A stretch of DNA of 52,729 nt, from positions 1 to 52,729 of the forward strand of contig QCJD01000011.1 in NCBI GenBank assembly GCA_003216255.1, in the 5' to 3' direction. A program made the position numbers and the translations under genes. This DNA comes from Pelagibacteraceae bacterium AG-404-N13. GTDB taxonomy: Bacteria > Pseudomonadota > Alphaproteobacteria > Pelagibacterales > Pelagibacteraceae. Each line of letters starts with the position of its first letter. Positions within the stretch are counted from its first letter, which is position 1. The notes below the pieces were generated by a model. It did not search any database, was not told where the DNA came from, and saw nothing but the letters and a program-made list of their open reading frames with translations. Of this stretch, positions 21,706-31,512 are shown piece after piece.

Positions 21706-22146
21706 ATGAAAAAGAAAAACTTAATGGGATTTATAATTTCAATAACTTTATTAATGTTTTCTACTAATTCAATGGCAGCAGACGAAACTATCGAAATGTT
21801 AAATAAACTTGGGAAAGAGTCAATGGTTTACTCAAAAAAGGTAGTAAGAGTTGATGTTGGAGATACTGTTTTTTGGAAAGCAACTGACAAAGGCCATAAT
21901 GTAGAATTTATAAAAGGTGGTATTCCTGAAGGAGTAGATAAATTTAAATCTAAATATAATAAGGATACAGAATATCAGTTTACGGTGCCTGGTATTTACG
22001 CTTATTGGTGCACACCTCACAAAAATATGGGCATGATAGGTTTTGTGGTTGTTGGTGATGACAAATCAAATTTAGAAGCAATTAAAAAAATTAAGTTTAT
22101 GGCTAAATCAAAAAAAATTGCTCCTGATCTAATTAATTCTTTATAA
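21706..22146 (+). CDS. Pseudoazurin-type blue copper protein
   Basis: A 146-residue periplasmic electron carrier. The signal peptide is MKKKNLMGFIISITLLMFSTNSMA. The copper ligands are H64 in KGHNVEF, and C102, H105 and M110 in YWCTPHKNMGM (Cys-x2-His-x4-Met), the pseudoazurin spacing. The mature part begins DETIEMLNKLGKESMVYS, also typical. In other bacteria pseudoazurin feeds nitrite or nitrous-oxide reductases, which are not expected here, so it probably links the cytochrome bc1 or another donor to a terminal acceptor. AAAGGA lies upstream of the start. Confidence 0.93.
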   Translation: MKKKNLMGFIISITLLMFSTNSMAADETIEMLNKLGKESMVYSKKVVRVDVGDTVFWKATDKGHNVEFIKGGIPEGVDKFKSKYNKDTEYQFTVPGIYAYWCTPHKNMGMIGFVVVGDDKSNLEAIKKIKFMAKSKKIAPDLINSL

Positions 22147-27267: not shown

Positions 27268-27969
27268 ATGAATAAATTTTATTCATTAAAATATAATTTT
27301 TATTTTGTTGTAAAGATTTTTCTTCTTACGACAATCATCTCATTTTTTTTAATTTCATTCTCTGAGGCTGGTAAAAAAAAAGATAAAGAGGAAAAAGATT
27401 GTATTTATTGTAAAAAATATGAAAAGTTAAAAGACTGGCCTGAAGACGAACGACCTATAGCTTTTATTTATGAAGAAATAAATTATCCAGAAGGTATGTT
27501 TTCTAAGCAAAGAAAAACAAGCAAATTAAGACAAGAACAGGCAGGAAAAAAAGTTTACGCCAGATTTGTAAAAGCAAAAAGTTCTCTAAATAAATATCAA
27601 CACTTAATGATAAGAGACATGGCTTATTTTGAGGCTTTGTTTAATGAAATGCTTAATGACCCTAAAGCAAGTGTTGAGACTTTAGAAGGACTTAAAAAAG
27701 GAAGAGAAGCAATGAGAATGAGTCTTCAGATTTCACCAAAAGCAAAAGCATCAGAAGCAGTATTAAAGTTTTGGGCTACAGGAAAAATGCTAACAATTGC
27801 TCATAAAAAAAATAAAAAAAAAAGAAAAAAGAAACAAAAAGTTGACCCAGAGATTGCTGAAAGAGCAGCTGTTCTAGCGAATATGAAAAAGCAAATAGCT
27901 ACAGCAAAAGTAAATGCTCAAAGAGCAGCAACAATAGAAGCTCAAAAAAAAATAGAGGAAGCTAATTAA
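27268..27969 (+). CDS. Exported protein of unknown function, first gene of the Met-rich operon
   Basis: A 233-residue protein I do not recognise. A signal segment covers residues 14-35 (VKIFLLTTIISFFLISFSEAG). The mature part starts with a Lys-rich stretch and a CIYCKK motif (Cys-x2-Cys), which could bind metal or form a disulfide. The middle part has short helices, and the C-terminal third is a basic, probably coiled-coil segment with KKNKKKRKKKQK followed by an Ala/Lys/Gln helix. The stop shares one base with the start of the 832-residue Met-rich gene (TAATG), so the two are translationally coupled. Confidence 0.8.
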   Translation: MNKFYSLKYNFYFVVKIFLLTTIISFFLISFSEAGKKKDKEEKDCIYCKKYEKLKDWPEDERPIAFIYEEINYPEGMFSKQRKTSKLRQEQAGKKVYARFVKAKSSLNKYQHLMIRDMAYFEALFNEMLNDPKASVETLEGLKKGREAMRMSLQISPKAKASEAVLKFWATGKMLTIAHKKNKKKRKKKQKVDPEIAERAAVLANMKKQIATAKVNAQRAATIEAQKKIEEAN

Positions 27970-30467
27970 TGATAAAAATAATAATTAAAACTTTTTTAAT
28001 TCTATTTTTATTTTCTAATGTTTTGGTTAAAGCAAACGACATATCTGCAATGGGTGGAATTTCTGATGCAGCAGGAGGTGCTGCTCAAGCGGCTGCTGAT
28101 CAATTATCTTCTGATGCAGGAAAAGTTGCGGAAAATATAGCTGGAGCTACTGAAGCCTTAGGAGAAGCAAATTCTGAAATTGGAAAAGCATTAGATGCAT
28201 CAATATCTCAAGCAGAAACTGCAATGAAATTTGCACAAGAAAGTTTAGCTAAAGGAGATATAACAGGAGCTGTGCAAGCAATGACGTTGGTAGAGGGTGT
28301 AGCTGACATGGCTTTAGATGCTGTGCCTGAGCCTACATCTCTAGATATGTCAGGTATTGATTTTGGAAAAGAATTTTCTCCAGATGAAATGGCTGCTTTG
28401 TCTAGTATAGCAGGACAAATGGGTGCTGGAAAAGTTGTTGCCATGCAAAAATTAGCTGGAACAATGAGTGCAGTTCAAGGTGCGGGATTTGATGCTAAAG
28501 GAATGATGGGAGCTTTAGATGCCAATGGTGTTGGTATTGGAACTGCAATGACAGGATTAGCAAGTGCAGGAATGGTAAGTATGGACTCTATAGTTGGTGG
28601 ATCTTCTTTTAATATGGAGTCATTTGATGCAGGAAATTTTGCATCAATGAATGTTGCAGAAATGGGTATGAGTCCAGCAATGATGGCAGGAGCTCTAGAA
28701 GCATTGCCTGTTGGAGCAGCAACAGCAGCGTTAGAAACTTTAACTGCAAACCCTGGAGCTATGGGTGAAATGGGTGCAGCAATGACAGGAGCTATTGCAG
28801 CAACTATGAGTGCAAAAGGAATGGGAGAAGAAATGTTAGGCGCTATGGGAGCCACTATGGGCATGGACAATATGGCGGATATGGCTAAAGGAATGGAAGG
28901 TATGGCCGGCATGGAGGCAATAGGTAAAGCGATGGGTGGTATGGAAAATATGGCTAAGAGTTTAAGTACAGCTTTTGCATCACCTGCAACAGGAATTACA
29001 ACTGCAATGTCAGGTACCGTTGGCATGATGAGTGGGGCTATCTCAGGAAAAGCTCCAAAAGAAAAATCTGCAATCCAACAAGGAACTGAAGTTAAAGGTT
29101 CTTTTGCTGCAGGAATGGTAGATGGTGGACCAAAAGCATTAGAAATGCCTGAAAATATAAGTGAGTCTGGAATGATGATGGGTGCGATGGTCATGGCAAA
29201 ACCATCTTTAGCAGGTGGATTACCAGGTGCAATGGCACCACCTGATGGAATGACTGCATTAGGTATGGCAGGTACAATAGGAGAAAATGCTCCAGCTGGA
29301 ATGGTAGGTATGGGGGATGTTATGGGTGGAGCAATGGATAAAAATCAAATGAGTGAAGCAATGGCAGGTATGACAGGCATGGATTCTGGCGCTATGGATA
29401 AATTAGGAATGGCTGATATGGCTGCTCAAACTGGTCTGACGCCTGGAATGGTAGCAAGCATGGGTGCAGCAGGAATGGCAGGAATGGATATGACAGCCGT
29501 AATGGCCACAAACGTTGCAGGTTTGGGAAGCAAAGCTGTACAAAACATTGCAGGTATGGCGGCTGAAGGTGCAATGTCAGCTGGCATGATGGGTGATATG
29601 ATGGAAATAGGTTTAGTAAATCAAGGAACAATGGCAGCAATGGGTTCAGAAGGAATGAAAGGTTTAAGTGGAGCTATGGGCATGGAAGGTGGCAACATGG
29701 GACTAGCTGCTATGAGTGGTGGTATGGTTGGAATGGGCGCCTTGGATATGAATGCAGAAATGAATCCAGAAATGGCAGCAAGCATGGGAATTGTAGGTGG
29801 ACCCGAAGGAGCAAAATTAGGTGATATTATGGGTGGACCAAAAGATGCTGTTGATGGAATGGCTATGGGAATGGAAAGTGGAATGAATTTAGGACAGGTA
29901 TCCGCTGCAATGGGTACTGGTATTGATCCAGGAAAAGCTATGGGGTCTGTAGCAGCAGCAGCAGGAGCAGCTTCAGAAGCACAAGCAGGTTTAGCTGGAG
30001 CAGCAATGGGAGCAGCAATGTCTGCTCAAGGCGCTGCAGCAGCATCAATGGGCTCTCACGCAATGGGAGCAGCAATGGGTGTTGGAGGCATGGGTGAAGG
30101 AGCTATGGGCCAAGCTATGGATGGAGCTATGGGTGAAGCCATGGGCGGTGCTATGGGTGGTGCTATGGGAGCAGCCATGGCCGGAGGACCAACAGGACCA
30201 GGAATGGGACCAGGTATGGATGGAGGAGCTATGGGAGATCCAGGTGGAGCCATGGGCGGTGCTATGGGCGATCCAGGTGGAGCCATGGGCGGCATGGGCG
30301 CTATGGGCGGCATGGGTGATGCTCTTGGAGGAGCGCTTGGTGGACCTGATGGAGGACCAGGTGGAGCTCTTGGTGATGCAATGGGAGGACCAGATGGACC
30401 AGGAAACCCAGGACAACCAGGTGAACCAGGAGGACCAGGACCAGAACCTGGTGGTAACAAACCATAA
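27969..30467 (+). CDS. Giant exported Met/Gly/Ala-rich low-complexity protein
   Basis: An 832-residue protein unlike any family I know. It begins with a signal peptide (FLILFLFSNVLVKA), then an Ala-rich helical region to about residue 130. From there to about 770 it is a long irregular repeat of short units such as GAMG, AGMxGM and MGxAM. By hand count roughly 115-120 residues are Met (about 14%). I find no Cys, Trp, Tyr or Arg and a single His. The C-terminal 60 residues turn into a Pro/Gly tract with collagen-like triplets (GQPGEPGGPG). The reading frame is uninterrupted, coupled to the gene before it and 7 bases from the gene after it, so it is real. Possible roles are a secreted structural or surface polymer, a metal (Cu) binder through methionine, or an oxidant sink; none is proven. 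Confidence 0.88.
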   Translation: MIKIIIKTFLILFLFSNVLVKANDISAMGGISDAAGGAAQAAADQLSSDAGKVAENIAGATEALGEANSEIGKALDASISQAETAMKFAQESLAKGDITGAVQAMTLVEGVADMALDAVPEPTSLDMSGIDFGKEFSPDEMAALSSIAGQMGAGKVVAMQKLAGTMSAVQGAGFDAKGMMGALDANGVGIGTAMTGLASAGMVSMDSIVGGSSFNMESFDAGNFASMNVAEMGMSPAMMAGALEALPVGAATAALETLTANPGAMGEMGAAMTGAIAATMSAKGMGEEMLGAMGATMGMDNMADMAKGMEGMAGMEAIGKAMGGMENMAKSLSTAFASPATGITTAMSGTVGMMSGAISGKAPKEKSAIQQGTEVKGSFAAGMVDGGPKALEMPENISESGMMMGAMVMAKPSLAGGLPGAMAPPDGMTALGMAGTIGENAPAGMVGMGDVMGGAMDKNQMSEAMAGMTGMDSGAMDKLGMADMAAQTGLTPGMVASMGAAGMAGMDMTAVMATNVAGLGSKAVQNIAGMAAEGAMSAGMMGDMMEIGLVNQGTMAAMGSEGMKGLSGAMGMEGGNMGLAAMSGGMVGMGALDMNAEMNPEMAASMGIVGGPEGAKLGDIMGGPKDAVDGMAMGMESGMNLGQVSAAMGTGIDPGKAMGSVAAAAGAASEAQAGLAGAAMGAAMSAQGAAAASMGSHAMGAAMGVGGMGEGAMGQAMDGAMGEAMGGAMGGAMGAAMAGGPTGPGMGPGMDGGAMGDPGGAMGGAMGDPGGAMGGMGAMGGMGDALGGALGGPDGGPGGALGDAMGGPDGPGNPGQPGEPGGPGPEPGGNKP
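30222..30300 (+). repeat. In-gene tandem repeat encoding GDPGGAMGGAM units
   Basis: Two nearly identical copies of about 30 bases (unit GCTATGGG(A/C)GATCCAGGTG then GAGCCATGGGCGG) follow each other, encoding AMGDPGGAMGG twice, with a third partial copy after. Unlike the degenerate repeats elsewhere in the gene, these are identical at almost every base, so they arose by recent duplication and may vary between strains. Confidence 0.75.
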
Positions 30468-30474
30468 AAAATAA

Positions 30475-31512
30475 ATGACATTAATAAAAAAATATTTTTT
30501 TATTTTTATTTTTATTTTTTCAATTTTTATAATTAATTTTTCTTTTGCTGACTCAAATTTTGGAGACTTAACAGAAATGCGTGATGACAGGATGCGAGGC
30601 AAAGAAAATCAATGGGTTAGACCTCATCCTGGACCTTTTATATGGAATGGAATTGAAAGAGAAAAAGGAGTTTTTTCATGGGAGGAAGTAGACAAATATG
30701 TTGTTTATGCACAAGAACACAATCAAAAAACTATAGCTACTATTTGGCCTCACGCAAATTGGGAACAGAAATCATGTAAGAGAAAAAAAGCTAGAAGTCC
30801 ATTTGGAAAAAGATTTACAAAATATCTAAGTAAACCATGTTCAATGGAAAGTTATAAAAATTTTCTTGTAAAATTAGTAGACCGTTATGATGGCGATGGT
30901 GAAAATGATATGCCAGGTTTAACAAAACCAATTAAATACTGGCAAATAATGAATGAGCCTGAGTTTAAAATGTTTTTTAAAGGTACAGAGGAAGATTTTG
31001 TTGAAATTTTTAATTTTTCTTCAAAATTAATAAAATCAAAACAAAAAGACTCTGTAATTGTAATGGCTGGTGCAGCTGGAATGTTCCCAGAGAATAAAAA
31101 ATTTTGGAAGTCAGCTTTACCAAAAATAAAAGATCATTTTGATATAGCTGCTATACACCATATAACTCCTCCTGATGGAAAGTGTGATAAAGAATTTTGG
31201 GTAGATGAGTTTTCAAATTTATTAAAATCATTAAATATAACCAAACCCATTTGGGTTACGGAAGCTATGTTAGGAAAATGTAAAGTTATTGCAACTTATG
31301 CAAGAGCTTTTGCAAGTGGAGCCGAAGTAATCATTGATGTTGGTGTTAATGCACCTGGTATGAAAATGACTAAAGGTGCTCGAAAAAAACTGAATAAATT
31401 TATAAAAGAATATGATGGTTTTGATTCAGTTAAATTAATTTCAAAAAATGAAGCTGAATTTACTTACAAAGATGGTTCTAAAAAATCCTTAGATTTTAAA
31501 AAATTTAAGTAA
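30475..31512 (+). CDS. Exported glycoside hydrolase-like protein, clan GH-A type
   Basis: A 345-residue protein with a signal peptide (FIFIFSIFIINFSFA) and the look of a (beta/alpha)8 retaining glycosidase. WNGIEREKGVFSWEEVDKYV is the usual strand-1/2 segment, the acid/base would be E161 in WQIMNEPEF, and the nucleophile E263 in PIWVTEAML, about 100 residues apart as in clan A (families such as GH39, GH5, GH10). Conserved histidines lie in IHHITPP. The exact family and sugar are not clear. It starts 7 bases after the Met-rich gene with no own ribosome site, so it is made with it; its last 8 bases overlap the convergent epoxide hydrolase. Confidence 0.82.
   Translation: MTLIKKYFFIFIFIFSIFIINFSFADSNFGDLTEMRDDRMRGKENQWVRPHPGPFIWNGIEREKGVFSWEEVDKYVVYAQEHNQKTIATIWPHANWEQKSCKRKKARSPFGKRFTKYLSKPCSMESYKNFLVKLVDRYDGDGENDMPGLTKPIKYWQIMNEPEFKMFFKGTEEDFVEIFNFSSKLIKSKQKDSVIVMAGAAGMFPENKKFWKSALPKIKDHFDIAAIHHITPPDGKCDKEFWVDEFSNLLKSLNITKPIWVTEAMLGKCKVIATYARAFASGAEVIIDVGVNAPGMKMTKGARKKLNKFIKEYDGFDSVKLISKNEAEFTYKDGSKKSLDFKKFK

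What the first reader, a model, noticed from the sequence alone, without database searches (positions are those of the whole stretch)
27969..30467. 832-residue protein with about 14% methionine and no Cys, Trp, Tyr or Arg
By hand count about 115-120 of 832 residues are Met, in short GAMG/AGM-type units, and I find none of four amino acids. In a SAR11-type cell, which needs reduced organic sulfur, such a methionine cost is striking and suggests selection for the thioether itself: Cu(I) binding, reversible oxidation (oxidant sink), sulfur storage, or a hydrophobic self-assembling fold by close Gly/Ala/Met packing.
Basis: partly seen in the sequence, partly recalled or inferred. Interest (0 to 1): 0.85.

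Follow-up and report, generated by a model that had tools for sequence, protein, structure and literature searches.

The report
Methionine-packed secreted protein of ocean bacteria
Some of the ocean's SAR11 bacteria carry a large, apparently exported helical protein in which methionine has taken over many of the greasy positions that its closest relatives fill with leucine, isoleucine or valine, and selection keeps it there although these cells must obtain their sulfur ready-made.

Summary
In detail: 832 aa, 117 Met (14.06%), no Cys, Trp, Tyr or Arg. It is not mutational: GC at fourfold sites equals that of neighbouring genes (0.123 vs 0.121).

It is the second gene of a patchy cassette seen only in SAR11 as far as searched. 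A 233-aa, apparently exported partner lies directly upstream in 36 of 43 relatives; the other 7 start at a contig end. Profiles link the pair to other SAR11 pairs of partner and large protein, and to single ORFs that fuse both domains.

One scan gave 39 Met-rich and 4 Met-poor relatives. The Met-poor keep the partner and lack Cys/Trp too, but hold Ile/Leu/Val in 281 of 405 ungapped cells at Met columns. So the family does not need the thioether. Within the Met-rich branch, however, Met is the least changed residue.

Best reading: an extracytoplasmic helical scaffold whose body packs through Met, Gly and Ala. Shown: anatomy and selection. Inferred: export, assembly, function. Copper looks unlikely; oxidant buffering, hydrophobic binding and nutrient storage remain open. 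No family in four profile libraries matches.

The parts
27268..27969 (+). Partner protein, 233 aa, apparent N-terminal signal peptide (by eye), CxYC motif, conserved core; overlaps the next gene by one base
   Evidence: ORF; upstream of the Met-rich gene in 36 of 43 loci, the other 7 start within 181 bases of a contig end; profile match to partners of other large SAR11 secreted proteins, E 3e-19
27969..30467 (+). Met/Gly/Ala-rich body protein, 832 aa (the finding)
   Evidence: 39 Met-rich and 4 Met-poor relatives
27969..28034 (+). Apparent Sec signal peptide, residues 1-22, cleavage probably after A22 (read by eye, no predictor run)
   Evidence: sequence; a hydrophobic N-terminus is kept in relatives
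28080..28613 (+). Conserved N-terminal domain, about residues 38-215, shared with large coiled-coil proteins and fused forms
   Evidence: hhalign prob 98.2, E 4e-14 over residues 65-191; HMM hits in other bodies and in the fusions
28359..30038 (+). Met-rich, predicted helical body, residues 131-690; Met at positions that are mostly aliphatic in the Met-poor branch
30039..30464 (+). Low-complexity tail, residues 691-832: GAMG units of 12 nt spacing, then Gly/Pro-rich end
   Evidence: (repeat family D1); low pLDDT
30475..31512 (+). Optional third gene, 345 aa, apparently secreted, possible clan GH-A glycosidase (NEPE and TEAM glutamates invariant in 17 of 17 aligned)
   Evidence: present in 24 of 43 related loci, in 0 of the 4 Met-poor (one of these has only 0.6 kb downstream); only weak matches to glycosidases (NF051902 E 0.015; 5z3k E 0.085)

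Best explanation
The protein is the large 'body' component of a two-gene secreted system confined, as far as searched, to the SAR11 family. A small partner protein (27268-27969) goes with the body's N-terminal domain. The C-terminal body differs from version to version: coiled-coil, Asn/Ser/Ile-rich, short, or, as here, Met/Gly/Ala-rich. In the Met-rich branch about two fifths of the hydrophobic positions of a helical body are filled with Met, and many polar and beta-branched positions with Gly or Ala. The result is a flexible, closely packed helical protein, cheap in nitrogen and carbon but costly in sulfur. It most likely works as an extracytoplasmic structural scaffold that self-associates by Met-Gly-Ala helix packing and is held or assembled by the partner. 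Shown: composition, family, partner linkage and fusion, Met on aliphatic positions, selection for Met, amino-acid-level (not mutational) cause. Inferred: export (signal peptides read by eye), helical fold (prediction), physical contact with the partner (from gene fusion), self-assembly and structural role.
For: Partner upstream in 36 of 43 loci, the other 7 being cut by the contig. Partner and N-terminal domain both match the paired genes of about 1140-1650-aa secreted coiled-coil proteins (E 3e-19 and 4e-14), and both domains occur in one ORF in L164 (partner 24-219, N-domain 233-378) and, more weakly, in L016, L018, L167, L168. At 112 Met-majority columns the four Met-poor relatives hold I/L/V in 281 and M in 60 of 405 ungapped cells; 84 of 102 ungapped Met columns are hydrophobic there. 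Met-Met pairs are enriched at i+4 (31 vs 16.5) and depleted at i+1 and i+2, and adding Met to I/L/V/F raises the 100-degree helical signal from z 0.2 to 3.6, as for helix faces. Met is the least changed residue and 61 of 115 Met columns are invariant in 33 proteins. AlphaFold gives mostly helical models with much the same helix map for both kinds. A single branch with support 100/100 divides Met-rich from Met-poor.
Against: No structure or assembly is demonstrated. The Met-rich model has mean pLDDT 57.5 with 359 of 832 residues under 50, the Met-poor one 45.6; each alignment held rows of both kinds (A4: 4 Met-poor of 35; A5: 11 Met-rich of 15), so the likeness of the two helix maps is partly built in. 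The Met-poor protein has its hydrophobic periodicity nearer 120 degrees (z 3.5; 1.1 at 100), unlike the Met-rich one. No convincing PDB relative by sequence (best E 0.073, designed filaments) or by Foldseek; VIA-align finds mostly generic helical bundles over residues 30-120. The tail (691-832) looks disordered and repeat-built, which a packed scaffold does not need. Positional constraint on Met is strong but not unique: the neighbouring GH-like gene has Met at 0.43 times its mean rate, against 0.45 here, and one transporter 0.00; the other ten families tested run 0.65-1.86. The tree model assumes one composition, and six rows, all four Met-poor among them, depart from it. No transcript or protein evidence of expression was seen.
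Confidence: 0.4

Rival explanations
1. Reversible oxidant sink or redox-sensing assembly: Met is almost the only oxidisable side chain, and Met sulfoxide is reduced again by exported Msr enzymes.
For: 117 Met with no Cys, Trp, Tyr and one His. The window's genome has an MsrA and an MsrB with apparent signal sequences. All 21 carriers searched (18 Met-rich, 3 Met-poor) have either an MsrP-family hit or a long, probably exported MsrA. In one locus, L120, an exported-looking MsrB lies about 5 kb from the gene. Precedent: MrpX/BcrX of other Proteobacteria (passages of PMC8315932).
Against: Such repair is nearly as usual without the cassette (15 of 18 non-carriers). By motif, no MsrA or MsrP and only that one MsrB were found among 695 neighbour ORFs of 44 loci. 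The Met-poor branch lacks Cys and Trp too. A sink needs Met content, not the position-by-position conservation seen.
Confidence: 0.2
2. Hydrophobic binding surface of Met side chains (as recalled for the SRP54/Ffh M domain): a chaperone-like or ligand-binding exported protein.
For: Met spaced as on one face of helices; Met replaces I/L/V but is then held.
Against: No ligand, no related known fold found; the size, Gly content and tail are unlike the M domain (recalled, not compared here).
Confidence: 0.15
3. Reserve of amino acids that SAR11 must take up: Gly, Ala and Met make 54.6% of the residues, and are the residues gained over the Met-poor branch.
For: Composition. SAR11 needs reduced sulfur and glycine, with pyruvate/alanine effects (passages of PMC6775983; an alanine requirement is recalled only).
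Against: A reserve needs composition, not sites: dN/dS 0.06-0.13 in the 15 closest pairs, and 61 Met columns invariant in 33 proteins. Secreting a reserve into open water would be wasteful unless it stays in the periplasm. Only the tail behaves like a composition-only region.
Confidence: 0.1
4. Cu(I) or other soft-metal binding through thioethers.
For: Met-rich, apparently exported; a pseudoazurin-like copper protein lies 6 kb away in the window (21706-22146), and its relative near one other locus, L090.
Against: MM and MxM depleted (7 and 8 against about 16.5), MxxM not enriched (20 against 16.4), one His. Only 2 of 44 loci show that copper protein; other copper genes were looked for only by one motif and by eye.
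Confidence: 0.04
5. Elemental economy alone: an abundant exported protein drifted to residues poor in N and C, Met being a cheap import where DMSP is plentiful.
For: Side-chain N 0.088 and C 1.92 per residue are below every one of 627 other ORFs (minimum 0.121 and 2.44).
Against: S is 0.141 per residue against a maximum of 0.077; I/L/V to Met saves no N. The Met-poor branch is fairly N-poor (0.188, background mean 0.334) without Met.
Confidence: 0.11

Closest known systems
MrpX / BcrX periplasmic Met-rich peptides with MsrPQ (Azospira, Brucella)
   Same: Exported, Met-rich; could be oxidised and repaired
   Different: Those are MxKDx-repeat peptides linked to msrPQ and an ECF sigma factor (passages of PMC8315932; the original paper PMC4436054 was not held); here no MxKD, no NCBIfam match, no MsrP motif near the cassette, 832 aa with a conserved partner, and Met-poor relatives exist
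Met-rich low-complexity domain of yeast ataxin-2 (Pbp1)
   Same: Met as packing and redox-sensitive residue in a self-associating protein (passages of PMC8394241)
   Different: Eukaryotic, cytosolic, no sequence relation tested or expected; here the body is predicted helical and conserved site by site
Met-rich seed storage proteins (delta-zein, 2S albumin)
   Same: High Met in an exported protein (search listing only)
   Different: Bacterial, site-by-site conserved, fixed partner gene
Large SAR11 secreted coiled-coil proteins with their partner (own genome, G000 contig 8; L015 5280-10783)
   Same: True relatives: homologous partner and N-terminal domain, same gene order
   Different: About 1140-1650 aa, ordinary composition (Met 1.3-2.4%), coiled-coil bodies, Cys/Trp/Tyr/Arg present

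Membership tests
SAR11 partner + body pair (named here) | Partner gene directly upstream on the same strand | tested here: met
   Window and 36 of 43 loci; the other 7 start at a contig end. In L114 and L122 the partner ORF looks broken
SAR11 partner + body pair (named here) | Shared N-terminal domain of the body | tested here: met
   hhalign prob 98.2, E 4e-14; HMM hits in bodies and fusions
SAR11 partner + body pair (named here) | Partner homologous to the other partners | tested here: met
   hhalign prob 99.2, E 3e-19
MrpX/BcrX Met-rich peptide | MxKDx repeats | tested here: not met
   No MxKD in the protein; no NCBIfam family up to E 0.1
MrpX/BcrX Met-rich peptide | Operon with msrP/msrQ | tested here: not met
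   MsrP motif in 0 of 695 neighbour ORFs of 44 loci. In the 13 carriers with an MsrP-family hit it lies on another contig in 12 and about 17 kb away in one, G388 (places)
MrpX/BcrX Met-rich peptide | Sacrificial oxidation in the periplasm | not testable with these tools
   needs biochemistry
Met-motif copper protein | MxM / MxxM motifs above chance, usually with His | tested here: not met
   MxM 8 vs 16.5 by shuffling, MxxM 20 vs 16.4 (z 1.1), one His; that such motifs define the kind is recalled
Any Pfam, NCBIfam, PHROG or PADLOC family | Profile match of the protein | tested here: not met
   0 families at E up to 0.1 (Pfam, NCBIfam) or 0.01 (PHROGs, PADLOC)
Clan GH-A glycosidase (third gene) | Two catalytic Glu after strands 4 and 7 | tested here: inconclusive
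   N160-E161-P162 and E263 invariant in 17 of 17 aligned (17 of the 25 known), but only weak matches; strand positions are recalled, no fold was predicted

The most novel reading that the evidence does not exclude
A bacterial, extracytoplasmic, redox-switchable protein assembly: a helical scaffold packed by over a hundred methionines that loosens when sea-surface oxidants turn them to sulfoxides and is reset by exported MsrA/MsrB or by MsrPQ, so that one lineage of SAR11 has turned its scarcest nutrient, reduced sulfur, into a reversible structural switch, while a sister lineage runs the same protein on Ile/Leu/Val.
Probability: 0.13. Interest if true: 0.88.

Novelty: new variant of a known kind. 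Interest (0 to 1): 0.62.

Why it matters
It is a clean natural experiment on what methionine is good for in a protein. The same kind of body exists in two sister branches, one mostly with Ile/Leu/Val and one with Met at the same positions, and selection then holds the Met in place in a cell that depends on others for reduced sulfur. The pair makes the question of structure, redox or nutrition directly testable by swapping one body for the other. It also adds a two-gene, apparently exported system, with fused versions, that no family in the four profile libraries searched describes, to one of the most abundant groups of cells in the ocean.

Tried and rejected
Spurious ORF or antisense product: rejected, since the frame is kept with dN/dS 0.06-0.13 in the 15 closest pairs; the antisense ORFs 28475-29194 and 30056-30481 were taken as by-products of the ATG/GGN/GCN composition and not tested further.

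Foreign DNA or GC-biased mutation as cause of the composition: rejected, GC at fourfold sites 0.123 vs 0.121 in neighbours.

Phage origin: a pattern-based scan of viral contigs found no relative (11 stretches matched a pattern, none confirmed); PHROGs none for this protein. Defence system: PADLOC none.

Known fold: Foldseek against PDB, best E 1.7; VIA-align on Foldseek's 67 chains, top Z 8.4 with rmsd 8.5 over 78 residues, mostly helical bundles; profile against PDB sequences, best E 0.073, designed filaments; partner profile, best E 0.88. Regions beyond residue 120 were barely tested by these.

False relatives: two weak hits of the family-wide search (G534 and G039; L081 and L083, E 1e-4 and 8e-4) read as NusA-like proteins and were set aside as chance. 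Its hits in G054, G383, G613 and G630 are N-domain-only matches.

Msr enzymes as a specific companion of the Met-rich protein: tested and not supported, because non-carriers have them nearly as often (15 of 18, against 21 of 21).

Papers: 'SAR11' + 'methionine-rich' gave one unrelated paper (listing); 'Pelagibacter' + 'methionine-rich' none; a search on hypervariable secreted proteins gave one general review (listing); 'methionine bristles' with three more terms none. So I saw no description in print, within that library.

Rows dropped: of 40 Met-rich proteins (window + 39), 7 were left out of the column, rate and tree counts for being under 800 aa (L093, L109, L117, L118, L119, L120, L126); L093 at 767 aa is probably complete. 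The scan of species genomes used two short conserved patterns, so its counts are lower bounds.

Ecology (depth, season, sulfur supply of carriers) was not tested: no sample data were read.
Full report
OBSERVATION. The ORF at 27969-30467 (+) encodes 832 residues with 117 Met (14.06%), 177 Gly, 160 Ala, one His and no Cys, Trp, Tyr or Arg. Among 627 other ORFs of at least 150 aa in the window and 43 related loci (many homologous to one another), Met averages 2.81% (sd 1.22, maximum 7.1%) and none lacks all four of those amino acids. Per residue its side chains hold 0.088 N, 1.92 C and 0.141 S; the first two lie below and the third above the range of all 627 (0.121-0.510, 2.44-3.98, 0.005-0.077). 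The gene has 47% GC in a 31% GC window, but at fourfold-degenerate sites the 40 Met-rich genes have 0.123 GC against 0.121 in the neighbours (window gene 0.117, Met-poor 0.143). So the cause lies at the level of amino acids, not in mutation bias or a foreign origin.

RELATIVES. In 399 genomes of the genus, 24 had a match: 18 with the Met-rich protein, 3 with a distant full-length relative, 3 with the N-terminal domain only, in much larger proteins (with compositions). A pattern-based scan of the species-genome collection found 43 loci, all titled Pelagibacteraceae: 39 Met-rich and 4 Met-poor (L123, L124, L125, L127). Met is 11.9-15.9% in the 33 full-length Met-rich proteins, 11.2-16.0% with the partial ones, and 2.9-3.4% in the Met-poor. 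The Met-poor proteins are 736-764 aa and about 32-35% identical over most of their length. Cys and Trp are absent in 44 of 44 proteins including the window's. In the maximum-likelihood tree of 37 a single branch with support 100/100 divides the two kinds; the tree is unrooted and its model assumes one composition, from which six rows depart, so which state is older is not shown. I take Met-poor as older only because ordinary composition is the rule. Viral contigs gave none.

A TWO-GENE SYSTEM. A 233-aa protein with an apparent signal peptide and a CxYC motif ends at the first base of the Met-rich gene. It is present upstream in 36 of 43 loci; the other 7 begin at a contig end. It is 53-57% identical between the branches while the body is about a third identical. 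Profiles connect it (E 3e-19) with the partners of about 1140-1650-aa coiled-coil secreted proteins, one of which is in the window's own genome (G000 contig 8). The body's N-terminal domain is connected with theirs (E 4e-14). In L164 both domains sit in one 915-aa ORF (partner 24-219, N-domain 233-378), and shorter fused forms occur in L016, L018, L167 and L168 with weaker N-domain scores (4e-9 to 8e-8, in a set of 114 proteins); L169 is doubtful (0.04). Fusion suggests that the two parts work together. The partner family was found in 22 of 297 genomes of the order, all in two genera of the same family, and in 0 of 239 other genomes sampled from the class. The cassette sits at several junctions: in the window between clusters 4 and 9, in L085, L089 and L092 between 34 and 5, while each has the other's junction without it. 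So it is patchy and has moved. A third gene, a possible glycosidase, follows in 24 of 43 loci and in none of the 4 Met-poor ones, one of which has only 0.6 kb downstream.

WHAT METHIONINE REPLACES. At 112 Met-majority columns of 33 full-length Met-rich proteins, the four Met-poor proteins hold 116 Ile, 113 Leu, 52 Val, 60 Met, 64 other residues and 43 gaps. Of 102 Met columns without gaps there, 84 are hydrophobic positions; in all, 84 of 202 hydrophobic columns are Met in the Met-rich branch, 83 are I/L/V/F and 35 something else. Met pairs are enriched at i+4 (31 vs 16.5, z 4.2; z 2.8 without the tail) and depleted at i+1 and i+2 (z -2.8 and -2.5; -2.1 and -1.7 without the tail). Counting Met with I/L/V/F raises the helical 100-degree signal from z 0.2 to 3.6 in residues 60-690. 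The Met-poor protein L124 has its peak nearer 120 degrees (z 3.5) and only 1.1 at 100, so the periodicity is not the same in both. AlphaFold gives mostly helical models with much the same helix map, but low confidence: mean 57.5 with 313 of 832 residues at 70 or more, and 45.6. Both alignments held rows of both kinds, so that likeness is partly built in. Met enrichment grows behind the N-domain: 2.7-6.2% to residue 130, 11.2% in 131-200, 15-17% beyond.

SELECTION. Among 528 pairs the median pS is 0.55 and pN 0.15; for 261 pairs with dS under 1 the median dN/dS is 0.16, and 0.06-0.13 in the 15 closest. Met is changed in 0.110 of comparisons, the lowest of all residues (Gly 0.140, Ala 0.194, Leu 0.226, Val 0.330, Ile 0.381); at neutral rates an ATG would stay unchanged in about 0.09 (a rough calculation). 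Relative to each protein's own mean, Met changes 0.45 times here, 0.43 in the GH-like neighbour, 0.71 in the partner, 0.00 in one very conserved transporter, and 0.65-1.86 in nine other neighbours. So Met is not freely exchanged with Leu/Ile inside the branch, although it is between branches.

FUNCTION. The best reading is a flexible helical scaffold outside the cytoplasm, packed by Met with Gly and Ala and handled by the partner. Export is read from the N-termini, not measured. An oxidant-buffering role is possible: exported Met-rich peptides that are oxidised and repaired are known (MrpX/BcrX; passages of PMC8315932), and the window's genome has MsrA and MsrB with apparent signal sequences. 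But such repair is near-universal in the SAR11 genomes I chose: of 39, 21 have an MsrP-family hit and 15 others a long MsrA (open frame of 192 aa or more), none both, 3 neither; carriers 21 of 21 (3 of them Met-poor), non-carriers 15 of 18. Signal peptides were read in four of the 15, and MsrP and MsrQ were confirmed by NCBIfam in one genome. By motif, one exported-looking MsrB (in L120) and no MsrA or MsrP occur among 695 neighbour ORFs of 44 loci. Copper is unlikely from the motif counts. Storage of Gly, Ala and Met fits the needs of SAR11 (passages of PMC6775983) but not the constraint on single sites.

NOVELTY. No Pfam, NCBIfam, PHROG or PADLOC family matches the protein, and paper searches found no description. 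As a kind, exported Met-rich proteins are known, so I call it a new variant; as a family and as a paired system it appears undescribed in what I could search.

Noticed in passing
39 SAR11 genomes; own genome L134 943-1521, and L138 651-2134: Extracytoplasmic Met-sulfoxide repair seems to alternate: an MsrP-family hit in 21 of 39 genomes (MsrPQ confirmed in one), a long MsrA in 15 (signal peptide read in four), both in 0, neither in 3. Lineage effects were not corrected for.
   Followed up: partly
own genome, L173 1492-1962 (-); L120 6665-7120 (+): MsrB with an N-terminus that looks like a twin-arginine signal, so these organisms may repair both Met-sulfoxide forms outside the cytoplasm.
   Followed up: no
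L015 5280-10783 (own genome, contig 8): Second partner+body pair: 278-aa partner with a weak SHOCT match and a 1555-aa secreted coiled-coil protein; phage tape-measure profiles match only its coiled-coil part.
   Followed up: partly
L164 5427-8174; L016, L018, L167, L168: Single ORFs that fuse the partner domain to the body's N-terminal domain; the shorter ones share a similar C-terminal end, as in GTNYTVDEAKESLGQ.
   Followed up: partly
window 21706-22146 (+); L090 3769-4203 (+): Pseudoazurin-like small exported copper protein, named from its sequence by eye.
   Followed up: no
L114 9251-9992; L122 9410-9955: The partner ORF appears broken in these two single-cell genomes while the Met-rich gene is intact; sequencing error or decay cannot be told apart.
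   Followed up: no
L012, L014, L015 and neighbouring clusters 13, 18: Families of secreted proteins, some with an FNKWLxxNG-type N-terminus, recur near both kinds of body genes and near alginate-lyase-like and sulfatase-like genes; no Pfam match for the three FNKWL-type or related proteins tested.
   Followed up: no
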